A stretch of 12,281 nt of DNA, taken from NCBI GenBank assembly GCA_003162555.1, contig PMNQ01000082.1:982-13262 (forward strand), in the 5' to 3' direction. Of this stretch, positions 1,882-12,281 are shown piece after piece (the first letter of the stretch is position 1; each line of letters opens with the position of its first letter). The notes below the pieces were generated by a model, which saw only the letters and a list, made by a program, of their open reading frames with translations, was not told where the DNA came from and did no database searches. The DNA comes from Gammaproteobacteria bacterium. GTDB taxonomy: Bacteria > Pseudomonadota > Gammaproteobacteria > Steroidobacterales > Steroidobacteraceae. The translations under genes were made by a program, and so were the position numbers.

Positions 1882-2706
1882 TCAGTGCGGCTCGCTGCCC
1901 GGCTTCGGATCAGCCAGCGGGAAGCTGTGCGCAGGCTCGGCGGGCGCGGCCGGGGCTGCCGCTGGCACCGGCGTAGCGACTGGCGCCGGACCGATCAGCG
2001 TACCGGCAGTGCCCGCGGCAGCAGGCGATTGGCTCGCGACGATCGCGGCGATGAAACGGCGCGCGGATTCTGAGCTGGTCTTCACCGTGCCCATGAAGAT
2101 ATCGTCGGTCGTAACGTCGTGGCCGTAGAAACTGCGATTGGCCTTGTGGTCAAACATCAGCGCCGTGCCATCGAGCGCGACGCCCGCGAACAGGCCGCGC
2201 GCGCGGGAATAGGAATAGATTTCGGCCTGCACGCCGGCCGAGGCTTCGCCGCTCCGTCCGAGCGGTCCGGCGGCCACCGAGGCGCTCGCGCCGAGCGTGA
2301 ACTGGCCGCGCGCGAAGTTCTCAAGGCTACGTCGCGTGGCAAACACCAGCACCACGTCGGCCGACTGCGCGCCGATCTGCCAGCCGACGCTTCCGCCGGT
2401 CAACGAAATGAACACCGGATTGCTGAAGCGGCCCGCCTCATCGCGCGAAGACAGCACGCCGTTGCCGTGGCGGCCACCGAAGATGAAGGCGCCTTTGAGC
2501 ACGTTGGGAATCACGGCCACGCCGTAGGCGCGGTCGAGCAGCCAGGTGGGCACGTGCTCGTCGGGAGTGGCGCGCAGCTCTTCCAGCACCTGCGTGGCGG
2601 TGACCAGGCGCGCGTCTTCGCGGTTTTGGGCCAGCACGGTGCCTGTCGGCAGCACAAATGCCGAGAGAACGAGCAGCAATGCCCGCGGCGGCGAGAAATG
2701 ACTCAT
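1882..2706 (-). CDS. Secreted SYLF/Ysc84-domain lipid-binding protein
   Basis: 274 residues. A signal peptide occupies residues 1 to about 26 (hydrophobic LLLVLSAFVLPTGTVLA). The SYLF (formerly DUF500) domain spans about 55-225, with the hallmark run RAYGVAVIPNVLKGAFIFGG (59-78), the GGSVGWQIGAQSADVVLVF block (104-122), and the SYSRARGLFAGVALDGT segment (165-181). Eukaryotic SYLF proteins bind phosphoinositides and bacterial ones are exported and poorly characterised; a membrane-lipid or envelope role is inferred. The C-terminus (226-274) is a low-complexity Ala/Pro tail. Start ATG 2706 has a strong Shine-Dalgarno AGGGGA six bases upstream. The gene lies 49 bp after the DUF3570 stop and three bases before Kdd, so it may head its own transcript with Kdd and Fsr or be read through from the redox cluster. 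Confidence 0.88.
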   Translation of the reverse strand: MSHFSPPRALLLVLSAFVLPTGTVLAQNREDARLVTATQVLEELRATPDEHVPTWLLDRAYGVAVIPNVLKGAFIFGGRHGNGVLSSRDEAGRFSNPVFISLTGGSVGWQIGAQSADVVLVFATRRSLENFARGQFTLGASASVAAGPLGRSGEASAGVQAEIYSYSRARGLFAGVALDGTALMFDHKANRSFYGHDVTTDDIFMGTVKTSSESARRFIAAIVASQSPAAAGTAGTLIGPAPVATPVPAAAPAAPAEPAHSFPLADPKPGSEPH

Positions 2707-2755: not shown

Positions 2756-3898
2756 TCAGAACCAGAACGAAATAAAGCCCTGAAAAATGTTGGCGTTGAG
2801 TATGTACAGCGGCTCGGTTCCGGGGGCGACGCCCTGTACACGCAGATCGCGGAAGTCGTCGTAGCTGATGTGCATTCGATCCCAGCGCACGTTGATGGTT
2901 CCCTTCTGCAGCCACGAAAACCGCGATACGTGGTATTCCCAGGTCGCACCGATCCCCATCGTCAGGTTCCGGAATGCCGCCAGCTCGCGGTCGCGCGCCA
3001 GGAAGTTCTGCGCGTCCCGGAACGGAAACAGGTCGGAGTAGAAGTCGGCCTGGTTCTGGCTGTACATGCGCACATGCGTGTCGAGCGTCCAGCTGTGGAA
3101 CAGCGGCTGGGTGTAGCCGAGCTCGGCGGTGTTGGCCCTGATGCCCCAGGTATCGGCGAAGAAGCGGTAGCTGCCGGATACGGCTGCGTGCCAGGGCAGG
3201 TAGTACTTGAGCTGCCCCGAGCCGGCATTGCCAGTGCGGGTGTGCGGATAGCGTTCCTTCTCGTAGGCGTAGCCCAGCGCCTCAAGTGGATCGAGGTAGC
3301 GCACCTGGCGATAGGGATTATTCAGGAAGCCTTCGCTTTCGCTGGTCTCGAAGTTCAGGCCAAGCAGGAGATTACGCGTCAGGATCTGCGACAGGCCGAT
3401 CTGCCAGTTGCGCCGCTCGACCGCGTCATTGCGCGTCGTGCCCAGCTCGCCGACCTTGTCCCAGCCGCGCGTGAAGCCGAAGGAGACGGTGGTCAGGTCG
3501 CCGAACATGTCCTGGCTGACCGAAGCGAAGGCGGTGGTCGCCTTGTAGTCGTTTTCCTTGCTGCCGATGTAGCCCGCGCTGTAGGTGGTCTTGCCATGCA
3601 GGACATCGACGCTGAGGCTGTCCTGCTTGCGGTGTTCCTTGTACGGGCTGGCCTGCGTGATCACGTCGATCGAGGCGCCGGAGATCATGTCTTCGTAGTG
3701 GTTGTAGGCCACCGAAAAATGATCGCCGAACTTCTTGCGCACCAGTATCGAGGGGCCCTGGATGGTGATGCCGCCGCCGTTGTAGCGATGCCAGAGAATG
3801 TCGGCCCGATCATCCGGCAGCACGCCGGCCTGCGCGCAGCCGAGCACCAGCACGGCCAGGGCGGCGAGCCGGGTATGGATGCGCGTAGAGGGATTCAC
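2756..3898 (-). CDS. DUF3570 outer-membrane beta-barrel protein, GTG start
   Basis: 380 residues from GTG 3898. The frame stays open upstream to 4126, but those residues are Arg/Ser-rich and lie antiphase under the DUF4266 gene, so they are rejected. From GTG 3898 the protein begins with a clean signal peptide (HTRLAALAVLVLGCAQAG, residues 8-25) and then enters the mature domain at LPDDRAD. The rest shows alternating amphipathic strands, DUF3570-like segments such as YNGGGITIQGPSILVRKKF (39-57) and FLNNPYRQVRYLD (191-203), and a C-terminal FISFWF typical of BAM-inserted barrels. Function is unknown; DUF3570 proteins often sit beside DUF4266 and thioredoxin genes (recalled, not checked). The GTG follows the DUF4266 stop by seven bases without an obvious ribosome binding site, which suggests coupled translation. 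Confidence 0.85.
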   Translation of the reverse strand: MNPSTRIHTRLAALAVLVLGCAQAGVLPDDRADILWHRYNGGGITIQGPSILVRKKFGDHFSVAYNHYEDMISGASIDVITQASPYKEHRKQDSLSVDVLHGKTTYSAGYIGSKENDYKATTAFASVSQDMFGDLTTVSFGFTRGWDKVGELGTTRNDAVERRNWQIGLSQILTRNLLLGLNFETSESEGFLNNPYRQVRYLDPLEALGYAYEKERYPHTRTGNAGSGQLKYYLPWHAAVSGSYRFFADTWGIRANTAELGYTQPLFHSWTLDTHVRMYSQNQADFYSDLFPFRDAQNFLARDRELAAFRNLTMGIGATWEYHVSRFSWLQKGTINVRWDRMHISYDDFRDLRVQGVAPGTEPLYILNANIFQGFISFWF

Positions 3899-3905
3899 CG
3901 GACGA

Positions 3906-4151
3906 TCAATTGCAGCCGCAACCGCCGCCGACGCCGCCGGTGGCGCCGCGCGCGCCTTCGCGCGACTCGTAGACGTGGTCAATGTAGGTATTCGACACCG
4001 GGTTCGGCGTGAACGACATGATCGGATCGGCCAGATGTTCACGCTCGTAGGGCTTGACCCATGGCGTGATCGGGCTGCACGCGGACAGCGCCACGCTACC
4101 GGCTGCAGCCAGCAGCCAGATCGCAACGTGTCGCCATCCGCGCGTGTTCAT
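3906..4151 (-). CDS. Small DUF4266 lipoprotein with GGGCGCN tail
   Basis: 81 residues. The signal peptide ends in the lipobox ALSAC with acylation at C25. The mature part holds the DUF4266 core PYEREHLADPIMSF (residues 34-47), then HVYESREGARG, and closes with GGVGGGCGCN (72-81). The only cysteines in the mature protein besides the lipid-bearing C25 are the CGC pair at 78 and 80. It starts at ATG 4151, ten bases after the stop of the TlpA-like thioredoxin gene, and is followed directly by DUF3570. The function is unknown. The flexible Gly tail with two Cys could bind metal, carry a modification or exchange disulfides with the neighbouring thioredoxin; all three are inference. Codon use resembles its neighbours. 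Confidence 0.88.
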   Translation of the reverse strand: MNTRGWRHVAIWLLAAAGSVALSACSPITPWVKPYEREHLADPIMSFTPNPVSNTYIDHVYESREGARGATGGVGGGCGCN

Positions 4152-4161
4152 CGTGCGTCCG

Positions 4162-4665
4162 TCATTCCCGGATCAGCGCCCGGATCTGGTCGAGATATTC
4201 ATTCTCGGCGCCAGGCTGGTAGCCGCGATGAATGTAGCGGACGTTGCCCTTACGGTCGAGGATCACGGTGTTGGGCATACCTTCCACCTGGTACAGCTTA
4301 CTCACCTTGCTGTCCACATCGAAGAGTATCGGAAAGGAGACAGGAGTGCTCTTCAGCCAGTTGATCGCGTCGGTCGAGTTCGGCTCGACGTTGACGCCCA
4401 CCATGGTAAAACCCATGGACTTGTACTGCTTGTGCAGCTGCTCGAGGATCGGCATTTCCTTGCGGCAGGGTCCGCACCAGCTGGCCCAGAAATTCACCAG
4501 CACGATCTGCCCCTTGAGCGAATCCAGGTTGACCGGCTTGCCGCTGTTCGAAGCGAGCTGGAACGCGGGCGCCGGCGCGCCGGCCCGTATCGGGTCGACA
4601 CTGGTGCCGAGCACCGGGAGCGCTGCGAGCGCGCTGAGACAAAGCAGGCGAAGTGCAATCTTCAT
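4162..4665 (-). CDS. TlpA-like exported thiol-disulfide oxidoreductase
   Basis: 167 residues. An N-terminal signal peptide or anchor (MKIALRLLCLSALAALPVLG) is followed by a thioredoxin/AhpC-TSA-like domain starting at APAFQLASNSGKPVNLDSLK. The active site is WCGPC (residues 63-67, C64 and C67), preceded by VLVNFWAS. The cis-proline loop is GMPNTVIL (129-136). This is the architecture of TlpA/ResA-type periplasmic proteins that keep cysteines reduced, for example apocytochrome c CxxCH sites or copper-site cysteines. The cluster contains five CxxCH sites and a CGC-tailed lipoprotein, any of which could be its partner. Start ATG 4665 has GGAG nine bases upstream, and the gap to the upstream barrel gene is 16 bp. 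The family is certain, the partner is inference. Confidence 0.95.
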   Translation of the reverse strand: MKIALRLLCLSALAALPVLGTSVDPIRAGAPAPAFQLASNSGKPVNLDSLKGQIVLVNFWASWCGPCRKEMPILEQLHKQYKSMGFTMVGVNVEPNSTDAINWLKSTPVSFPILFDVDSKVSKLYQVEGMPNTVILDRKGNVRYIHRGYQPGAENEYLDQIRALIRE

Positions 4666-4674
4666 GGGTCAGGA

Positions 4675-4678
4675 CTCC
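4675..4678 (-). promoter_or_regulatory. Ribosome binding site of the TlpA-like gene
   Basis: GGAG on the minus strand, nine bases before ATG 4665. It lies in the 16-bp gap after the barrel gene stop. Confidence 0.65.
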
Positions 4679-4681
4679 GTG

Positions 4682-5416
4682 TCAGAAGAACACGGTCGCG
4701 CCGATATGTGCCGACAGGTTGTTACGCAGCCGGTCTGTACCGAGGAAGTCGGACTTGAACACCTGGTCCTGCGCCTCGATGCGGATCGTCAACCAGTCCG
4801 TCGGCAGCACCCGGAAACCCGCGCCGAAGTTGACGGTGAATTTCTGGTCACCTTCGAACTTCGTGCTGCCGATGCCGCCCAGCAGGTAGAGCCCGCTGGT
4901 CATGGCGAGATTGCGACCGAGAAAGACCTCGCCAGGCAGGAAGTTGTAGCCTAACGAGAGGTTGTAATACGTGAAGCGCCTCTCATCATCAGTGAGCAGC
5001 TGCACATTTCCGCCCAGGGTCTCGAAACTGGTCTTGCCGGTCTTGGCGCGCCCGGCGGCGGCCTCGAAGAAAAAATCTTCCGTGACGTGGTAGTCAAAAA
5101 CGGCACCCACTACTGGCGCCGCGGTGTAACTCTCGATCGACATTTCGCCGAAGTAGGCGCCCAGCTCGACATTCTTGGCCTTGATCTTCGGCACCTTGAT
5201 CTTGCGCCGCTCTACCTGCGGATCGATGACCACCGGTGGTGGTGCGGCATCGGCCGCGGCTGCCGCGGCATCCGCAGCAGCGTCGGCATCCTGCGCGCTG
5301 GCCTGGTTCTTGGCGTGATGGTGCCACGGCCAGTGCATGTGCCGGTGCAACGTGGCGCAACCGCTGGTCAAAACCAGGAGCGAGGCTAGTAGAAGAACGC
5401 GAATCCGATTTTCCAT
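4682..5416 (-). CDS. Lipid-anchored outer-membrane beta-barrel protein with His-rich linker
   Basis: 244 residues. The signal peptide ends in the lipobox LTSGC (C20). Next come a His-rich stretch HRHMHWPWHHH (residues 24-34), an Ala/Asp low-complexity linker (39-60) and a Lys-rich segment RRKIKVPKIKAKNVELG (70-86). The barrel domain (about 84-244) is built of amphipathic strands and ends in ATVFF. It looks like the 'outer membrane beta-barrel domain' group first named from myxobacteria (YFGEMSIESY, then FDYHVTEDFFFEAAAG), recalled from memory. Start ATG 5416 has GAGGTG eight bases upstream and overlaps the preceding gene by 31 bp. Function is unknown; it could be a surface scaffold or pore partner for the cytochromes. 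The short His/Met/Trp cluster may bind metal. Confidence 0.85.
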   Translation of the reverse strand: MENRIRVLLLASLLVLTSGCATLHRHMHWPWHHHAKNQASAQDADAAADAAAAAADAAPPPVVIDPQVERRKIKVPKIKAKNVELGAYFGEMSIESYTAAPVVGAVFDYHVTEDFFFEAAAGRAKTGKTSFETLGGNVQLLTDDERRFTYYNLSLGYNFLPGEVFLGRNLAMTSGLYLLGGIGSTKFEGDQKFTVNFGAGFRVLPTDWLTIRIEAQDQVFKSDFLGTDRLRNNLSAHIGATVFF

Positions 5417-6171
5417 TCCTGTTTCACCTCATTGGCATCGCTCTTCGTGAACACCGTATGGTGACGGTATTCAGCACGCAGGAAAAAGCGCCGGGTCAGA
5501 TAGAAGCGCGCTCCGGCTCCCGCGTAGGCGGTCTGATAATTCTGGTTCAGCGGCGTGACCAGCGTGGCTTTGGGCTCGGTGCGCTCGACGCCGGTGCCCA
5601 GCGTCACGAACGGCGAGAAGCGCCATTCGGGCATGAACACGTGGTTGAGCCCCAGGTCGGCAACGTAACCGTTGGACAGATTGCCGAGGAACTGCCCGAC
5701 TTGCAGCTCGAGCTTCAGGTTGTCCGTCAGCGAGCGCGCCCAGAACCCCTCGACCAGTGTGGCGCCAGCGTAGTCGCCGGCGAGAATGCCGCCTTCCCAG
5801 CGGTGCGATTGAAAACCCTTGCGATCGCCGCGATCAAATTTGAACGTCGAGCCGTCGGCCAGCGTCGTGGTCTCGAGGCTCCGTTCGGACGCCCAGCCTT
5901 CGACGCCGCGTTCGGTGCGCACCTTGAACCATTCGGTGCGCCGGAACAGCACGTCGATTGATTCGCCGCGCGCCACCACCTGGGCCACCGGATACCCACG
6001 GCCTGGACCCGTGTGCAGTTCGATGAACGGCTCGGTGACGAACAGCTGCAGCAACTCGCGATGCGCCGCGCGGCCTGGGATCGGCGCCAGGCACAGCAGC
6101 AGCGCCAGCAGGCGCAGCCGCCTAGTTGTTGAGCGGCGCGGCAAACGGATTGTTGTAGTACTGAGCTCCAA
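5386..6171 (-). CDS. SH3-domain plus outer-membrane beta-barrel protein
   Basis: 261 residues from TTG 6171. The hydrophobic signal segment is RRLRLLALLLCLAPIPGRAA (residues 17-36). A bacterial SH3 (SH3b) domain follows at about 42-100, with VTEPFIELHTGPGRGYPVAQ (45-64) and EWFKVRTERGVEGWASERSL (80-99). The remainder (about 120-261) is a beta-barrel ending in IGFAFFY. SH3b domains usually bind peptidoglycan or peptides, so the protein may tether the barrel to the cell wall. The start is uncertain. TTG 6171 has GGTGG close by but overlaps the upstream cytochrome gene by 50 bp; TTG 6144 would shorten the overlap and still keep the signal peptide, but lacks a binding site. No ATG fits. The gene end overlaps the next barrel gene by 31 bp, indicating coupled translation. 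Confidence 0.85.
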   Translation of the reverse strand: MELSTTTIRLPRRSTTRRLRLLALLLCLAPIPGRAAHRELLQLFVTEPFIELHTGPGRGYPVAQVVARGESIDVLFRRTEWFKVRTERGVEGWASERSLETTTLADGSTFKFDRGDRKGFQSHRWEGGILAGDYAGATLVEGFWARSLTDNLKLELQVGQFLGNLSNGYVADLGLNHVFMPEWRFSPFVTLGTGVERTEPKATLVTPLNQNYQTAYAGAGARFYLTRRFFLRAEYRHHTVFTKSDANEVKQEWKIGFAFFY

Positions 6172-8821
6172 TATCCACCCATTCTGACAGCAATCGCAGT
6201 TCAGCGGGAGTCATGAACCCGCTGTGATTCACAGGAGCTGCCGGCGTGCCGGCGAGCACCCTGAAGAACCGCGACCCTGCTGCGTTGCCGGGCGCCATGG
6301 AGCCAGGGACCTGCGTGTCAGTGCGTACCGGCGCGCAGCCGGCATCGAGACTGAAACTGGAAGTGGTGTGCGTGCTGACCAGTTGTTGGTAAGCGCGTAA
6401 CTGCGCGGTGACCTGCTGGGCCGGATCGGCGTCGAGTTCGAGGCCGCCATCCGCCGCGACCGGCAGCGTGACCGTCACCGGTGTCGGCGGGACAGTCATG
6501 CCAGGCGTGGGCGCCGGCGTGCAGGTCACATCCTGCGTGCGCGTGGCCGTGTGGCAGGTGGTGCAGGTGTTGACCGCGCGGTCGACCGACCAGAGCGGAT
6601 CGATATGCGCGGGCCAGATCGTGGTCGCGCCAGTGCCGCTGGCCGCGTAGTCGATCGTGATGCGGCAGCCGGATGAGTAGCTGTTGTTGCAGCTCGTGCT
6701 GGTCGGCAGCGGCGTGGTCAGTCCGGGAGTGTAGGTCAGCGAAATGGGCGAATCCGGCGCGACCGTGCCCGCATAGATGACATTGAGGCTGGGCGTGGCC
6801 GCGTTGCAGGCGATCGTGCCGCCGCAATTGGTGAGCGCGCCGTACACGCTCTGCGCCATGGTGGCGCCATTGTTGTTCGGGTCGCCGGCGTTGGCCGGCG
6901 CGAACAGGCCACTACGCCCGTGCGAGGTGGTGCTGGTGGCGGTGCGCGCATTGTGGCAGCCGTTGCACTGCAGGACTTCGCCCGGGCGCAGCTGCAGCCA
7001 GGCGCGGTGCTGCGGGAACTGCGGCAGCCGGCGCGCGTTCGCATCGATCACTGAAATCTGGAAGGCGACGTTCGAGGGCACCTTCACGCGCACCGAGCCA
7101 TCCGCTTCGATCGGCACATAGCCGAGGATTTCGCGCATGAAGCCGACGGAGTTACCGAGCGAGATGTTGCGGTCGAAATCAGGAAAGCCGTCCATCAGGT
7201 CCTTGTCGCCCAGCGAAACCGCCTTCTCGATGCGCAGGAAGCGCGCGTTGCGTGCATCCGCCGGCGTCGTCGACATGCGCGCGATGACATCTGCGTTGGT
7301 CTCGGCGCCGGTCGCGAGCGGCACGGTGGCATCCGCCCAGTCATAGATACTGCGGATATCGATGATGCCGAAGCCGTCGCCTGCCAGCGTCGTGCCGGTC
7401 GGCACCGGCGACACGAAGGCCGGCACCGGCCGCGCCTGCAGCGAAACGATGTCGGTCAGCATGATGTCTTCGGTCGGCGAAACGATGGGCTTGAAGGTGT
7501 TGTCCGTAGGATTGAACAGCCAGGCGCTGTACAGCGGCGGCGCGATCGGCAGCGCTGGCGTGATCGCGAGGTTGGCGCTGGTGCACGGCACGGTGGCGCC
7601 GGTGGAATCGATCAGGCGGCATTCGGTCCAGCTCGCCAGGATCCGATGCGTGCTGTCCCAGAGCGGGTAGGCGGAATTGAAGCGGCCGCCAGGCGAAGGC
7701 CCAGGGATGGTGCGCACATCGTTGGGAGTCGCGGCCGCCAGAGCCGGGCAGGGGTTCGTGGTCGTGGGTCCGGGGCCGGCGGCGAGCGTGCGCTGATTGC
7801 ACTCAACGGAATTCACCACATCGAGGATCACGAGATTCCCGCCGAAGTCGGTGCCGGGATCCTTCGGCCGCGTCAGCGCGAGCACCCGGCCGTCTTCCAT
7901 CTGCCGCGCCTTGACGAACTGCACGTCGGTCGGCAGTCCCGTGGTTGGATCTGCGGTGCCCACCATGTGGCTGCGCGCGCCGTACAACAGCTCGACGTCG
8001 CTCCCGTCCGGATTCATCGTGTACAGGTGCATCGCGTTGGTGCCGCCGGGCGCGTGGTCCCAGCGCGTGTACATGATGCGGCCGCCGGACATCACCGTCG
8101 GGTTCAGGTCGTGGCTCTGGTTGAACGAGATCTGCTGGAAGGCGCTCGGGCCGGTCAGCGTCGGGTCGAGCACGTTGAGCGTGAAGGCCGATTCATCGCC
8201 GTTCTCGGTCTGCGCCTCGAAGCCGCTCTTGCCTTCGATCAGCAGCACGCCCTTCGAATAGCGCTGGCGCGTCGAGGCGATGAGGATGCGGCCGTTCGGG
8301 TGCGAGGTATCGAGGGGCAGGTAGTGTGGCGACACGTCCTGGCCTTCATCGGCGGTCACATCGTCCGTGAGGCTGTGCAGGTCGTCGGCGGCGATGTCGT
8401 ATTCCCAGATGCGCCAGGTCGGCGTCTCGAAATCCTTCATCTTCGGATCGATCGGTCCGCGCATGGCGAACACGAGCCGCGTGCCGTCAGCCGAAACATC
8501 GAGATCACGGATGTCGTAGAAATCGGTGCCGGTGATGCGCGTGGTGATGTTGCGCTCGACGCCGCTCGGCGTAGCCTTGTCGCGAATGTAAACGTCGGCC
8601 TTGCTCCAGAACGGCCGCTGGTGCGTCAGGTCGTCCAGATCGCGCAGCTTCTGCAGCTCCACCGGATCGGTCGGCAGCATGCGCTTGATGTAGGCAATAC
8701 CGAAGTCGGTGGTACCGCCGCCGGTCTGTCCATGGCCGATGTCGACCGAGCCTTTGCTGCTGCAAGCAGACATAAGCACGATCGCCAGCAGGCTCAATAG
8801 CAGACGGATATCACGGTTCAT
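6122..8821 (-). CDS. HzsA-related (hydrazine synthase alpha-like) two-haem lipoprotein
   Basis: 899 residues from ATG 8821, chosen because it gives a lipoprotein signal peptide with lipobox LMSAC (C20) and has GGAG nine bases upstream. The frame runs open to 9007 but that part has no signal sequence. Residues about 95-500 look like a beta-propeller of TolB/PD40 type, with repeats such as LDVSADGTRLVFAMRG (107-122), HDLNPTVMSGGRIMYTRWD (237-255) and LYTMNPDGSDVELLYG (266-281). A middle domain (about 560-640) carries the first haem site CNGCH (619-623) after HRAWLQLRPGEVLQ. A C-terminal domain carries CTTCH (753-757). The order propeller, haem, haem matches the alpha subunit of anammox hydrazine synthase, but such HzsA-related proteins also occur outside anammox. 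Extra Cys (341, 358, 401, 413, 666, 672, 711, 719, 767, 829) suggest disulfides. Electron-transfer or oxidoreductase role inferred; substrate unknown. Confidence 0.87.
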   Translation of the reverse strand: MNRDIRLLLSLLAIVLMSACSSKGSVDIGHGQTGGGTTDFGIAYIKRMLPTDPVELQKLRDLDDLTHQRPFWSKADVYIRDKATPSGVERNITTRITGTDFYDIRDLDVSADGTRLVFAMRGPIDPKMKDFETPTWRIWEYDIAADDLHSLTDDVTADEGQDVSPHYLPLDTSHPNGRILIASTRQRYSKGVLLIEGKSGFEAQTENGDESAFTLNVLDPTLTGPSAFQQISFNQSHDLNPTVMSGGRIMYTRWDHAPGGTNAMHLYTMNPDGSDVELLYGARSHMVGTADPTTGLPTDVQFVKARQMEDGRVLALTRPKDPGTDFGGNLVILDVVNSVECNQRTLAAGPGPTTTNPCPALAAATPNDVRTIPGPSPGGRFNSAYPLWDSTHRILASWTECRLIDSTGATVPCTSANLAITPALPIAPPLYSAWLFNPTDNTFKPIVSPTEDIMLTDIVSLQARPVPAFVSPVPTGTTLAGDGFGIIDIRSIYDWADATVPLATGAETNADVIARMSTTPADARNARFLRIEKAVSLGDKDLMDGFPDFDRNISLGNSVGFMREILGYVPIEADGSVRVKVPSNVAFQISVIDANARRLPQFPQHRAWLQLRPGEVLQCNGCHNARTATSTTSHGRSGLFAPANAGDPNNNGATMAQSVYGALTNCGGTIACNAATPSLNVIYAGTVAPDSPISLTYTPGLTTPLPTSTSCNNSYSSGCRITIDYAASGTGATTIWPAHIDPLWSVDRAVNTCTTCHTATRTQDVTCTPAPTPGMTVPPTPVTVTLPVAADGGLELDADPAQQVTAQLRAYQQLVSTHTTSSFSLDAGCAPVRTDTQVPGSMAPGNAAGSRFFRVLAGTPAAPVNHSGFMTPAELRLLSEWVDIGAQYYNNPFAAPLNN

Positions 8822-8830
8822 TCCCACATG

Positions 8831-8834
8831 CTCC
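8831..8834 (-). promoter_or_regulatory. Ribosome binding site deciding the HzsA-related start
   Basis: GGAG on the minus strand, nine bases before ATG 8821. With the lipoprotein signal peptide that follows, it fixes this start over the open frame reaching to 9007. Confidence 0.7.
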
Positions 8835-8835
8835 A

Positions 8836-8849
8836 GCTGGCGAGCCAGC
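8836..8849. repeat. Palindrome GCTGGCGAGCCAGC next to a ribosome binding site
   Basis: A 6-2-6 inverted repeat whose minus-strand end lies one base from the GGAG of the HzsA-related gene. It could be an operator or, in the mRNA, a hairpin that masks the binding site. In this GC-rich sequence a short palindrome can also arise by chance. Confidence 0.4.
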
Positions 8850-9066
8850 GCTCGCGTTCTGCCAACTCGGTCACGTCCGCGCAAGGCACAGTTGGGGTTC
8901 CTTGTGGTCCCAGGGGGCCCGGCACGGCTCGCAAATCTAGCATGCACAGGTAGAGGTTCATGCGTGTGGCTGCCGTGACCCGCCTCGCAGATCGGGAATG
9001 CAAGCATAGCGGTTCAACGTAACCGGGAGCGTTGTCGGCATATGGCGACGTGTGCGCATTGAGACA

Positions 9067-9096
9067 TTCTGGCGGCCCCAAAGCCGTGCGTATATT
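9067..9096 (+). promoter_or_regulatory. Possible sigma-70-type promoter for the plus-strand cytochrome genes
   Basis: TATATT at 9091-9096 matches the -10 consensus at five of six bases and stands out in GC-rich surroundings. Eighteen bases upstream is TTCTGG (9067-9072), a poor -35 match. The implied leader would be about 35 bases. An activator may compensate for the weak -35. Confidence 0.4.
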
Positions 9097-9127
9097 CACC
9101 GCCGTAGTGGTGCCCACCGCGGCGCCT

Positions 9128-9132
9128 GGGAG
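9128..9132 (+). promoter_or_regulatory. Ribosome binding site of the single-haem cytochrome gene
   Basis: GGGAG six bases before ATG 9139. It selects this ATG over the earlier in-frame start at 9052, whose extra residues are Arg-rich and would bury the signal peptide. Confidence 0.75.
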
Positions 9133-9138
9133 CGACGA

Positions 9139-10317
9139 ATGAAACAGGTCATGCATCAAGGTCCCGCACGGCGCGCCGCCACGTTGGCAGGCGTGTTGCT
9201 GCTGGCGCTCCAGGGCTGGACGCCTGTGATCGCCGGTCCGCGTGAACAGGCGCGGCGCATGCATGATCGGCTTGCCGGCGTGCCGCCGAGCGATACGGTG
9301 CTGACGCAGATGGCTACTGATATCGCCGGCGGACAGTCCGATGCCGCCGCGCAGTTGGCGATGACCAACAAGAATTTCTACAACGTGACGCTGAAGAATT
9401 TCGTTGCGCCGTGGACCAACCGCGACCGCACCGTGTTCGTGCCGCTCAACGACTACACCGCGACCGTGATCGGCATGGTGCGCGACGACGTCGATTTCAG
9501 CACGCTGCTGTCGGCCGACCTGCTGTACGTGTCGAATGCGTCGGGCGCACCGGCCTATTCGGCCAGCAACAACGATCACTACCAGTACCTCGACGACAAC
9601 AACGTCGATCTGCAGGCCACGCTCCAGCCCGCGACGCAGTCTGGCCTGCTGGGCCTGCCGGTGGCGGCGACCGCCGGCATCATGACCACGCACGCGGCCG
9701 CGCAGGCCTTCTTCATCAACGGCACCAACCGCGCGATGTTCCGCTTCACGATGATCAATCACATGTGCCGCGACCTCGAGCAGCTGCAGGACTCCTCTCT
9801 GCCGCCGGATCGCGTTCGCCAGGACGTAAGCCGCTCGCCCGGCGGCGACAGCCGCGTGTTCCTCAATAGCTGCATCACCTGTCATGCCGGCATGGATCCG
9901 CTGGCGCAGTCGTTCGCGTACTACAACTTCGACGCGACCACGAACCAGCTGCAGTACACGGACGGCTCGGTGCAGCCGAAGTACCTGATCAACTCCGACA
10001 ACTTCAAGTCCGGCTACGTGACCGTCGACGATCACTGGGACAACCGTTATCGCCAGGGTGCCAACCAGGTGCTCGGCTTTGATGCGGCGCTGCCCGGCAC
10101 GGGCACCGGCGCCAAGAGCATGGGCCAGGAACTCGCGCACAGCGACGGCTTCGCGCAGTGCCAGGTCGAGAAGGTATTCAGGGCGGTGTGCCTGCGTGAT
10201 CCGGGCAACGCCACCGACCGCTCGACGGTGCAGACCATCAAGAACAAGTTCAAGACCACCGGTTACAAGATGAAGCAGGTATTTGCCGATGCCGCCATCT
10301 ACTGCATGGGCAACTAG
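9139..10317 (+). CDS. Exported single-haem c-type cytochrome, DUF1592/DUF1588-like
   Basis: 392 residues. The signal peptide spans residues 1 to about 32 (RRAATLAGVLLLALQGWTPVIAG). One haem c site, CITCH (245-249), is followed by AGMDPLAQSFAYYNFD, which resembles the DUF1588 signature of a CxxCH, then MDPxG and a following FD. Upstream, FSTLLSADLLYVSN (120-133) and GLLGLPVAATAGIMTTHAAA (169-188) resemble the DUF1592 part of planctomycete-type cytochromes. Near the C-terminus HSDGFAQCQVEKVFRAVCLR (334-353) has two further Cys, with another at 389, and no second CxxCH. It is shorter than typical DUF1592/1588/1585 fusions, so it may be a reduced form. Location is periplasmic or beyond. It forms an operon with the next gene (ten-base gap). 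The redox role is inferred and the substrate unknown. Confidence 0.85.
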   Translation: MKQVMHQGPARRAATLAGVLLLALQGWTPVIAGPREQARRMHDRLAGVPPSDTVLTQMATDIAGGQSDAAAQLAMTNKNFYNVTLKNFVAPWTNRDRTVFVPLNDYTATVIGMVRDDVDFSTLLSADLLYVSNASGAPAYSASNNDHYQYLDDNNVDLQATLQPATQSGLLGLPVAATAGIMTTHAAAQAFFINGTNRAMFRFTMINHMCRDLEQLQDSSLPPDRVRQDVSRSPGGDSRVFLNSCITCHAGMDPLAQSFAYYNFDATTNQLQYTDGSVQPKYLINSDNFKSGYVTVDDHWDNRYRQGANQVLGFDAALPGTGTGAKSMGQELAHSDGFAQCQVEKVFRAVCLRDPGNATDRSTVQTIKNKFKTTGYKMKQVFADAAIYCMGN

Positions 10318-10321
10318 GGAG
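10317..10321 (+). promoter_or_regulatory. Ribosome binding site overlapping the upstream stop codon
   Basis: GGGAG shares its first G with the TAG stop of the single-haem gene and lies six bases before GTG 10328. It supports the GTG start and coupled translation of the two cytochromes. Confidence 0.7.
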
Positions 10322-10327
10322 ATAGCC

Positions 10328-12281
10328 GTGAATCGTACGCTGCGAATTCCGCACCTGTTGCTCATCGGCCTGGTCGCTGTCGTGCTGAGCGCCTGCTCGG
10401 GCGGCGCGGCCACCACCGCCAACCCCAACGGCAATGGCAGCGTCACCGCTGCAAGCTACACCGGCCCGGCGCCCAGCACGGCCGACGTGCAGGCCTTCAA
10501 GATCAACCTCTGGCAGAACATCAACACGCCAAACCGCTGCGGCAACTGCCACAAGGCGGGCGGCCAGTCGCCGATGTTCGCGCGCTCCGATGACGTGAAC
10601 CTCGCCTACAACGACGCGCTCGGCGTCGTGAACCTGGCGCAGCCCGACCAGTCGAAGATGGTTCTCAAGGTGGCCGGCGGCCACAACTGCTGGCTCTCAA
10701 GCGCGCAGTCCTGCGCCGACATTCTCACCACCTGGATCAAGGCCTGGGCCGGCGGCGTCTCCTCGGGCGGCACCCAGATCCAGTTGCAGGCTCCGGTCCT
10801 CAAGGACGTGGGCAGCACCAAGACTTTCCCGGCGACCGCGAATGACAACGGCGCCGCTTCCTTCGCGCAGACAATCTACCCGCTGCTGAGCCAGTTCTGC
10901 TCGCGCTGCCACAGCGCCAACGCGACCACGCCGCAGACACCGTATTTCGCCAGCAGCGACGTTAACGAGGCCTACGCGAACGCGCAGGCCAAGATCAACC
11001 TCGACACGCCCGACCTGTCGCGCTTCTACGTGCGTCTGCACGACGAGAGCCACAATTGCTGGATCCCGCAGGGCGCCACGGCCGTGAGCTGCCCGCAGAG
11101 CTCGGCGATCATGCTGGCCGCGATCCAGGCCTTCGTCGATGGCATCGTGCCGACGCAGGTCGATCCCACGCTGCAGCTGTCGAAGGCACTCACTCTCTAT
11201 GACGGCACGGTCGCTTCGGGCGGCAACCGTTACGACACCGGCGTGATCGCCAAGTGGCAGTTCAAGGAAGGCTCGGGCAGCGTCGCCGACGACACCAGCG
11301 GCGTCGATCCGGCACTTAACCTGACGCTCTCGGGCGATACCGCCTGGGTCGGCGGCTGGGGCGTGAGCTTCGGCCCGAACGGCGGCGAAGCGCGCGGCGG
11401 CGCCGCCAGCAGCAAGCTCTACAACCTGATCAAGGGCGGCGGCGAATACAGCGTCGAGCTGTGGGTCGCGCCGGCCAACGTGACGCAGGAAGACGCCTAC
11501 ATGGCGAGCTATTCCGGCGGCACGGCGGCGCGCAATTTCACCATGGGCCAGCACGCCTACCAGTACGAGATGTTCGCGCGCTCCAGTGACACCGACGCCG
11601 ACGGAGCGCCGGCGTTGCTCACCAGCGATACGGATCGCGACGCCCAGGCCTCGCTCCAGCACGTCGTGCTCACCTACGACCCGGTCAACGGCCGGCGCCT
11701 GTACGTGAACGGCAACTTCACCGGCGACATGGACGCGGAGAAGGGCGGTTCGGTTGGCAACTGGGACGACACCTTCGTATTCCTGCTCGGCAACGAGACT
11801 TCGGGCAACCGCAAGTGGCAGGGCACGGTGCGCTTTGCCGCGGTGTTCAACAAAGCGCTGACGCAGGAGCAGATCCAGCAGAACTTCGCGGCCGGCGTCG
11901 GCGAGCGTTACTTCCTGTTGTTCAATGTGAGTGCGCTGACCGGCATGAGCCAGGCCTACGTGATGTTCGAGGTGAGCCGCTACGACAGCTACAGCTACCT
12001 GTTCACGAAACCGACTTTCATCAGCCTCGATCCGGCCGCCATGCCCGGCAGCATCGCGATCAAGGGCATGCGCATCGGCGTGAATGGCGCCGAGGCCGTG
12101 GTGGGCCAGGCGTACGCGCCGATCGATACGGTCGTCACCGACGCCAATTTCACGGCTGGGGTTGGGCAAAAGCTCAGTGCAGTTGGCACGGTCATCGCGC
12201 TGCAGAAGGGGCCGGATTCCGACCTGTTCTTCCTCAGCTTCGATCAGATCGGCAACAGCATGCACGTGCGCACTCCGCCTG
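10328..12281 (+). CDS. Two-haem LamG-domain lipoprotein, C-terminus beyond window edge
   Basis: 651 residues are visible and the reading frame is still open at the right edge. GTG 10328 gives a signal peptide with lipobox LSAC (C23). Two similar haem modules follow: CGNCH (71-75) with HNCW at 119-122, and CSRCH (191-195) with HNCW at 242-245. Residues about 305-520 form a LamG/concanavalin-A-like jelly-roll domain (GVIAKWQFKEGSGSVADDTSG, then YSVELWVAP, QHVVLTYDPVNGRRLYVNG, and RFAAVFNKALTQEQIQQNF). The region after about 527 (YFLLFNVSALTGMSQAYVMF, then KGMRIGVNG) is unassigned. LamG domains often bind carbohydrates or proteins, so this may be a surface cytochrome with a binding module. It is co-transcribed with the single-haem gene upstream. 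Haem and LamG calls are strong; the role is inferred. Confidence 0.87.
   Translation, partial: MNRTLRIPHLLLIGLVAVVLSACSGGAATTANPNGNGSVTAASYTGPAPSTADVQAFKINLWQNINTPNRCGNCHKAGGQSPMFARSDDVNLAYNDALGVVNLAQPDQSKMVLKVAGGHNCWLSSAQSCADILTTWIKAWAGGVSSGGTQIQLQAPVLKDVGSTKTFPATANDNGAASFAQTIYPLLSQFCSRCHSANATTPQTPYFASSDVNEAYANAQAKINLDTPDLSRFYVRLHDESHNCWIPQGATAVSCPQSSAIMLAAIQAFVDGIVPTQVDPTLQLSKALTLYDGTVASGGNRYDTGVIAKWQFKEGSGSVADDTSGVDPALNLTLSGDTAWVGGWGVSFGPNGGEARGGAASSKLYNLIKGGGEYSVELWVAPANVTQEDAYMASYSGGTAARNFTMGQHAYQYEMFARSSDTDADGAPALLTSDTDRDAQASLQHVVLTYDPVNGRRLYVNGNFTGDMDAEKGGSVGNWDDTFVFLLGNETSGNRKWQGTVRFAAVFNKALTQEQIQQNFAAGVGERYFLLFNVSALTGMSQAYVMFEVSRYDSYSYLFTKPTFISLDPAAMPGSIAIKGMRIGVNGAEAVVGQAYAPIDTVVTDANFTAGVGQKLSAVGTVIALQKGPDSDLFFLSFDQIGNSMHVRTPP
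10496..10753 (+). repeat. First copy of duplicated haem module
   Basis: Residues 57-142 of the LamG cytochrome. Order of landmarks: LWQNI, CGNCH, a SPMFARSDDVNLAY-type segment, HNCW (119-122), C129, then a helix ending in WAGG. It aligns by eye with the copy at 10862-11143. Confidence 0.75.
10862..11143 (+). repeat. Second copy of duplicated haem module
   Basis: Residues 179-272 of the LamG cytochrome. Order of landmarks: IYPLL, CSRCH, TPYFASSDVNEAY, HNCW (242-245), C255, then a helix ending in VDG. The same landmarks in the same order as in 10496-10753 indicate an ancient internal duplication. Confidence 0.75.

What the first reader, a model, noticed from the sequence alone, without database searches (positions are those of the whole stretch)
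2756..12281. Divergent eight-gene envelope redox locus with unknown substrate
Three exported cytochromes (five CxxCH sites), three outer-membrane barrels, a TlpA thioredoxin and a Cys-tailed DUF4266 lipoprotein are packed around one divergent promoter region. Every product carries a signal peptide or lipobox and no cytoplasmic enzyme interrupts them. This looks like a complete surface electron-transfer or oxidation system rather than unrelated genes. Known porin-cytochrome systems (Mtr, Omc) use different proteins. The substrate, and whether electrons leave or enter the cell, cannot be read from the sequence.
Basis: partly seen in the sequence, partly recalled or inferred. Interest (0 to 1): 0.75.

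Follow-up and report, generated by a model that had tools for sequence, protein, structure and literature searches.

The report
Conserved flavin-heme outer-membrane redox cluster
Dozens of related bacteria keep the same nine neighbouring genes for exported haem, flavin-type and thiol proteins in the same order, which looks like an undescribed machine for moving electrons across the outer cell membrane, although what it acts on is still unknown.

Summary
The eight genes are real, look exported, and carry five CxxCH haem sites. A ninth gene, a Tat-signal protein with an alkaline-phosphatase-type fold, follows the LamG cytochrome (90 of 92); it lies beyond the window's contig. The core is a variant of the published ApbE/DUF3570/DUF4266/thioredoxin flavinylation system. 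DUF3570 is predicted to be a 16-strand outer-membrane barrel with two tandem relaxed flavinylation motifs (99 of 99). A distinct ApbE subfamily tracks the cluster (48 of 54 carriers, 6 of 44 non-carriers), as does a marker of an Agl/Glt-like motor module (53 of 54, 7 of 44). HzsA-like is not hydrazine synthase: the Tyr ligand is absent in 116 of 116. Best reading: a thiol-to-flavin-to-haem relay across the outer membrane. Direction and substrate are inference. My searches of the held open-access library found no description of the combination.

The parts
2756..3898 (-). DUF3570 protein: predicted 16-strand outer-membrane barrel with tandem flavinylation-type motifs DMISGAS and DVITQAS
   Evidence: Pfam PF12094 E 4.9e-44; model pLDDT 84.7, pTM 0.80; barrel matches; motifs
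3906..4151 (-). DUF4266 lipoprotein with C-terminal CGC (CxC)
   Evidence: PF14086 E 1.6e-22; CxC tail in 101 of 101 copies examined
4162..4665 (-). TlpA/ResA-like exported thioredoxin, WCGPC
   Evidence: Redoxin PF08534 E 1.2e-30; ResA model NF002854 115.5 bits, under its cut-off of 170; CxxC in 92 of 92 copies examined
4682..5416 (-). OMP1: lipoprotein with outer-membrane beta-barrel domain
   Evidence: TIGR04565 OMP_myx_plus 149.8 bits, cut-off 60
5386..6144 (-). OMP2: bacterial SH3 domain plus outer-membrane barrel (start codon uncertain, TTG)
   Evidence: SH3_3 E 6e-9 over cut-off; OMP_b-brl E 1.5e-5, under cut-off
6122..8821 (-). HzsA-like dihaem beta-propeller lipoprotein
   Evidence: HZS_alpha PF18582 E 1.9e-13; family profile hits hydrazine synthase alpha 5c2v E 5.6e-16; CNGCH and CTTCH
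8822..9138 (.). 317-bp divergent intergenic region
   Evidence: gene starts; no sigma-70-like match
9139..10317 (+). exported monohaem cytochrome with PSD2/DUF1585-like C-terminus
   Evidence: PF07624 E 1.3e-4, 22.0 bits, under cut-off 25.8; haem motif in 108 of 108 copies examined
10328..12281 (+). dihaem LamG lipoprotein cytochrome, cut by the contig end
   Evidence: Laminin_G_3 E 1.9e-17; two CxxCH in 95 of 95 copies examined

Best explanation
One conserved envelope redox system. Shown by computation: gene content, order and conservation; a DUF3570 model that is a 16-strand barrel with two tandem D-x-x-[S/T]-x-A-S-type motifs on the face away from its termini; co-occurrence with a distinct ApbE subfamily and with a marker of an Agl/Glt-like motor module. 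Inferred mechanism: reducing equivalents from the cytoplasm pass through DsbD to TlpA, then to the CxC of the DUF4266 lipoprotein, then to one or two FMNs that ApbE attaches to DUF3570 in the periplasm before it inserts into the outer membrane. The flavinylated barrel hands electrons to outer-membrane haem lipoproteins (HzsA-like, LamG cytochrome) and the PSD cytochrome, which reduce or activate an external target, with the alkaline-phosphatase-fold Tat protein acting on or anchoring to the same target. I commit to outward electron flow because the donor side consists of Dsb/TlpA-type thiol carriers. That the genes form one system: about 0.97. This relay and direction: the confidence given below.
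For: Synteny in 125 distinct loci, 69 of them with all nine genes on the stretch held and 74 with all eight of the window; four genomes outside the order, in two other families, have all nine (these are among the 125). Published precedent: the same three families cluster with ApbE and often DsbD, and a DUF3570 was shown to be flavinylated, with two motifs that both had to be removed (PMC8238504, passages). Tandem motif in 99 of 99 DUF3570; the window's first motif DMISGAS fits the strict consensus given in PMC12052999 section 8. Cluster-type ApbE (>=250 bits) in 48 of 54 carriers versus 6 of 44 non-carriers. The window's own genome encodes it (G000:C6, the query) and a DsbD (G000:C101). ApbE lies directly upstream of hzsA on the same strand in L194, L209 and L210. 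Barrel model and matches. Invariant CxC and CxxC.
Against: No inner-membrane electron donor is encoded in the cluster; DsbD_TM is near-universal (94 of 98) and so uninformative. The strict Gly of the ApbE motif is kept at one or both sites in only 19 of 99 DUF3570, and the window's second motif has Gln there. TlpA is missing in 14 of 106 testable loci, so the thiol step cannot be obligatory as drawn. Three carriers show only distant ApbEs (G057, G059, G082). The flavin loop has low model confidence (pLDDT about 53, residues 71-80). Haem counts (1-2 per protein) are low for a long-range wire.
Confidence: 0.42

Rival explanations
1. Inward flow: the surface haem proteins and LamG cytochrome oxidise an extracellular polymer or small molecule, and electrons enter through the flavinylated barrel to the periplasm. 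The LamG domain binds the polymer and the alkaline-phosphatase-fold protein trims it.
For: LamG and alkaline-phosphatase/sulfatase-type folds suit polysaccharide-like substrates. The HzsA-like protein is related to a subunit of an anammox enzyme that makes a product by redox chemistry.
Against: The TlpA/DUF4266/DsbD side is of a reducing type. No periplasmic cytochrome sink or dehydrogenase is encoded in the core. No polymer-degrading enzyme was recognised among the recurrent flanking gene clusters, though these were not all annotated.
Confidence: 0.22
2. An envelope maintenance or assembly unit: TlpA and DUF4266 keep haem-binding or structural cysteines reduced, the barrels and SH3 protein anchor to the wall, and the Agl/Glt-like motor transports or assembles a surface polymer. 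The redox proteins sense or cross-link it; no long-range electron transfer occurs.
For: Strong co-occurrence with c7, a marker of the Agl/Glt-like module: 53 of 54 carriers versus 7 of 44 at >=126 bits, 10 of 44 at the default threshold; in a same-genus relative the module has ExbB, two ExbD and a TonB-like protein with an AgmX/PglI tail. Luciano et al. describe such gammaproteobacterial core complexes as of unknown function (PMC3169522, section 7 and passages). DUF3570's best structural neighbours include polysaccharide export barrels such as PelB, 4y25 and BcsC.
Against: Five haems plus predicted flavins are excessive for thiol upkeep; a subfamily-specific ApbE argues for flavin electron transfer.
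Confidence: 0.2
3. Hydrazine synthase-like nitrogen chemistry on HzsA.
For: Sequence relationship to 5c2v chain A, E 5.6e-16; equivalents of alpha-His689 and alpha-His772 are kept (with the 23-sequence alignment).
Against: The residue four after the CxxCH His, where alpha-Tyr591 would be, is never Tyr (0 of 116 sequences with a CxGCH motif). None of nine window proteins matched a hydrazine synthase beta or gamma model in NCBIfam. The HzsA homologues discussed in PMC12758564 (sections 7-8) have other neighbours.
Confidence: 0.03
4. Unrelated genes that merely sit together.
For: One lone HzsA-like gene exists (L202) and one locus lacks three partners (L115) among 125; 4 of 10 HZS_alpha-bearing genomes in the phylum draw have it unlinked to DUF4266.
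Against: Synteny in 125 loci and across families.
Confidence: 0.02

Closest known systems
ApbE-DUF3570-DUF4266-thioredoxin (DsbD) flavinylation clusters (Meheust et al. 2021, PMC8238504)
   Same: DUF3570, DUF4266 with C-terminal CxC and a thioredoxin-like protein; ApbE nearby in part of the relatives
   Different: Adds HzsA-like, two small outer-membrane barrel proteins, PSD and LamG cytochromes and an alkaline-phosphatase-fold protein. DUF3570 is a separate branch: four canonical copies score 92-114 bits on the profile of the linked form, linked copies at least 346 bits apart from two pieces at contig ends. ApbE is a separate subfamily. The Gly of the motif is mostly replaced. Two genomes carry both types (L194+L206, L197+L205).
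Hydrazine synthase alpha subunit and the HzsA homologues of Hagglund et al. 2025 (PMC12758564)
   Same: Propeller-type N-terminus, HZS_alpha middle domain, two haem sites, similar C-terminal region
   Different: No Tyr591; keeps the His772 equivalent that the paper reports absent in its clade I; neighbours differ (theirs: fused beta-gamma homologue, in clades I-III also a CRTAC1 family protein)
Agl/Glt core complex of Gammaproteobacteria (Luciano et al. 2011, PMC3169522)
   Same: Associated module with ExbB, two ExbD, a TonB-like protein with AgmX/PglI tail and TPR proteins; OMP1 belongs to TIGR04565, named for myxobacteria
   Different: Here it travels with a flavin-haem cluster, an association not mentioned in the parts I read; GltC and GltD equivalents were not identified
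MtrCAB-type porin-cytochrome conduits
   Same: Outer-membrane barrel plus haem lipoproteins

Membership tests
DUF3570-based flavinylation system | DUF3570, DUF4266 and thioredoxin-like genes together | tested here: met
DUF3570-based flavinylation system | apbE in the same gene cluster | tested here: inconclusive
   Not seen on the window's 13.3-kb contig (cut on the lamG side); encoded elsewhere in the genome (G000:C6); close-group ApbE within 12 kb of hzsA in 13 of 54 carriers
DUF3570-based flavinylation system | two [S/T]GA[S/T] motifs in DUF3570 | tested here: inconclusive
   Window: first motif fits (DMISGAS), second does not (DVITQAS). Family: tandem relaxed motif 99 of 99; strict D-x-x-[S/T]-G-A-[S/T] once in 18, twice in 1, never in 80
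DUF3570-based flavinylation system | covalent FMN on the protein | not testable with these tools
   needs co-expression and UV fluorescence or mass spectrometry
Hydrazine synthase | haem alpha-I coordinated by Tyr591 | tested here: not met
   H+4 position is Tyr in 0 of 116; position deduced by counting from His587, not from a structure
Hydrazine synthase | bis-His haem alpha-II (His689, His772) | tested here: met
   both align with His that are invariant in the 23 sequences of A1 (chain numbering shifted by 27, my inference); 27 of 117 copies lack a second plain CxxCH, some of them having a longer spacing
Hydrazine synthase | beta and gamma subunits encoded alongside | tested here: inconclusive
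   no match among nine window proteins in NCBIfam; not searched genome-wide
Agl/Glt core complex | ExbB/AglR-, two ExbD/AglQS- and GltG-like TonB protein in one cluster | tested here: met
   In same-genus relative G001 (L224): myxo_SS_tail 56.4 bits over cut-off 40, MotA_ExbB, ExbD twice. In the window's genome only the marker c7 was seen (G000:C151)
Agl/Glt core complex | GltC, GltD and GltE | tested here: inconclusive
   a TPR protein in L231 matches GltE at 48.8 bits, far under its cut-off of 225; nothing named GltC or GltD was hit
Porin-cytochrome (Mtr) conduit | multihaem (deca-haem) cytochrome inside the barrel | tested here: not met
   at most two CxxCH per protein in the window; in relatives at most two counted in HzsA and lamG

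The most novel reading that the evidence does not exclude
A new class of outer-membrane electron conduit: a 16-strand barrel carrying two covalent FMNs, fed by a periplasmic thiol relay, that passes electrons to surface haem lipoproteins including a relative of the hydrazine synthase alpha subunit, physically coupled to an Agl/Glt-type proton-driven motor. It would be widespread in Steroidobacteraceae, Woeseiaceae and other Gammaproteobacteria.
Probability: 0.28. Interest if true: 0.88.

Novelty: new variant of a known kind. Interest (0 to 1): 0.72.

Why it matters
It joins three loose ends that the papers I read treat apart: DUF3570/DUF4266 flavinylation clusters of uncertain function, HzsA homologues outside anammox bacteria, and the Agl/Glt core complexes of Gammaproteobacteria with no known job. 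If the reading is right, a widespread group of bacteria has an outer-membrane redox machine built on flavin rather than on multihaem wires. Strains held as isolates by their record titles (Povalibacter uvarum DSM 26723, Steroidobacter gossypii S1-65, Peristeroidobacter agariperforans KA5-B) make it directly testable.
Full report
WHAT IS THERE. The window is almost the whole of a 13,262-bp contig of a 72%-complete assembly. Its last gene runs off the contig. Leaving aside MFS, ornithine-cyclodeaminase-like and SYLF genes at 3-2706, it holds a divergent cluster. Minus strand: HzsA-like lipoprotein (6122-8821), SH3 plus barrel protein OMP2 (5386-6144), barrel lipoprotein OMP1 (4682-5416), TlpA (4162-4665), DUF4266 (3906-4151), DUF3570 (2756-3898). 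Plus strand: a PSD2/DUF1585-like monohaem cytochrome (9139-10317) and a dihaem LamG lipoprotein (10328 onward). Five CxxCH sites are present as claimed. Genes overlap or lie 7-16 nt apart within each arm, given the start codons chosen. Export signals were read by eye.

IS IT ONE SYSTEM. The HzsA-like protein occurs in 54 of 98 relatives, own genome included. After removing duplicates, 125 distinct loci remained. A partner was called testable if found or if the contig reached far enough. Present of testable: omp2 115/116, omp1 111/112, tlpA 92/106, DUF4266 101/103, DUF3570 101/103, psd 110/115, lamG 105/109, ninth gene 90/92; every one found had the expected orientation. Order was identical in 124 of 124 loci with two or more of the genes; 69 loci show all nine, 74 all eight of the window. 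Exceptions: L202, an HzsA-like gene alone; L115, lacking tlpA, DUF4266 and DUF3570; twelve further loci without tlpA, five titled Woeseiaceae and three from one genus; and L194, L209, L210 and L211 without the plus arm (ApbE lies upstream of hzsA in the first three). In a draw of 299 genomes across the phylum, HZS_alpha was found in 10 and DUF4266 in 21; in 6 of the 10 the two lie about 3-4 kb apart on one strand. Four of these (L195-L198) have the whole nine-gene set, although they lie outside the order, in two other families.

APBE. ApbE of any kind is in 53 of 54 carriers and 24 of 44 non-carriers (Fisher p 7.6e-8). A search with the window genome's own ApbE (G000:C6) splits ApbEs into a close group (>=250 bits in one piece) and the rest: close group in 48 of 54 carriers and 6 of 44 non-carriers (p 1.2e-14). 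Of the six carriers without, G077 has it split, G093 and G038 have only pieces at contig ends (in G038 a mere 39 residues, 1.2 kb from DUF4266), and G057, G059 and G082 only the distant kind. Canonical ApbE-DUF3570-DUF4266-thioredoxin clusters exist separately, even in the same genomes (L205 with L197, L206 with L194). Their DUF3570 score 92-114 bits on the profile of the linked form, where linked copies score at least 346 apart from two pieces at contig ends. The cluster thus has its own DUF3570 and its own ApbE.

THE MOTOR MODULE. Beyond the ninth gene in many loci, or directly after DUF3570 in the type without cytochrome arm, lie in various combinations a second TlpA, a small conserved protein (c7), c6 (weak TPR signal), a large TPR protein, then ExbB, two ExbD and a TonB-like protein with an AgmX/PglI tail (56.4 bits, cut-off 40). 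This fits the description of the gammaproteobacterial Agl/Glt core complex (PMC3169522, section 7 and passages), which its authors call a complex of unknown function, although GltC and GltD were not identified and GltE only weakly. c7 is in 53 of 54 carriers; in non-carriers 10 of 44 at the default threshold and 7 of 44 at >=126 bits (p 9.6e-19). It lies within 12 kb of hzsA in 27 carriers. Close-group ApbE lies within 5 kb of c7 in 17 of 98 genomes, and in 9 of these neither is on the hzsA contig, in one (G090) because that contig is short. So ApbE links the two modules. These tests do not correct for shared ancestry.

HZSA. The family profile matches hydrazine synthase alpha (5c2v, E 5.6e-16). 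Both ligands of haem alpha-II align with His that are invariant in 23 sequences, including the His772 equivalent that Hagglund et al. report missing in their clade I homologues (PMC12758564, abstract and sections 7 and 8). The position of Tyr591, the unusual ligand of haem alpha-I, is never Tyr (0 of 116). It is a redox relative, not a hydrazine synthase.

HOW IT PROBABLY WORKS. Shown: order, conservation, motifs, folds by prediction, co-occurrence. Inferred: DsbD to TlpA to DUF4266 to flavin on DUF3570 to haem lipoproteins, electrons leaving the cell; the ninth protein and LamG define the target. The weakest points are the missing TlpA in 14 of 106 loci, the relaxed motif, and the absence of a dedicated inner-membrane donor. 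Inward oxidation and a mainly structural or transport role are live rivals.

NOVELTY. Searches of the held open-access library for DUF3570/DUF4266 (one paper), HZS_alpha (seven), gliding core complexes (five and three), ApbE with outer membrane and extracellular electron transfer (four), planctomycete-type cytochrome domains (seventeen) and combinations (thirteen, ten listed) gave no title or abstract describing this combined cluster; most of those papers were seen as listings only. A term search in a Woeseiales metabolism paper (PMC7082342) found no LamG, hydrazine, outer-membrane or extracellular-electron mention. Passages of PMC3858216 repeat that the core system has an unspecified function. 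Subscription papers and preprints were not searched. I file it as a new variant of the flavinylation systems, with a bolder reading stated separately.

Noticed in passing
L202 (G271): A lone HzsA-like gene (524 bits) without the cluster, close to ORFs that look like ExbB and TonB by eye; different context, not explained.
   Followed up: no
L115: HzsA-like plus OMP2 and OMP1 but no TlpA, DUF4266 or DUF3570 within reach; the only such case among 125 loci.
   Followed up: no
L134, L135, L137, L138, L142, L144, L149-L151 and L068, L070, L222: tlpA is missing from the otherwise conserved cluster; five of these twelve loci are titled Woeseiaceae. DUF4266 is kept with its CxC.
   Followed up: partly
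L194, L209, L210, L211: Loci with HzsA-like through DUF3570 followed directly by c7 and TPR genes of the Agl/Glt-like module and without the cytochrome arm; ApbE lies upstream in the first three. A second architecture.
   Followed up: yes
one search hits; L101:4114-5694: A very large family (7,999 scored candidates all matched, a capped list) named hypothetical or, in some records, 'general secretion pathway protein GspF'; it looks like an alkaline-phosphatase-fold protein, so that name is probably wrong.
   Followed up: partly
G077:C204:1628-2523 (L218): The close-group ApbE is split in two frames, with a stop reported inside one piece, next to the cluster; assembly error or decay.
   Followed up: no
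window 1882-2706: A SYLF-domain exported protein lies next to DUF3570 here and near the cluster in about a third of the loci, not in all.
   Followed up: partly
L200, L201, L203 (G104, G199, G251): More distant HZS_alpha proteins (63-80 bits on the family profile) with none of the other cluster genes found on the stretches fetched.
   Followed up: no
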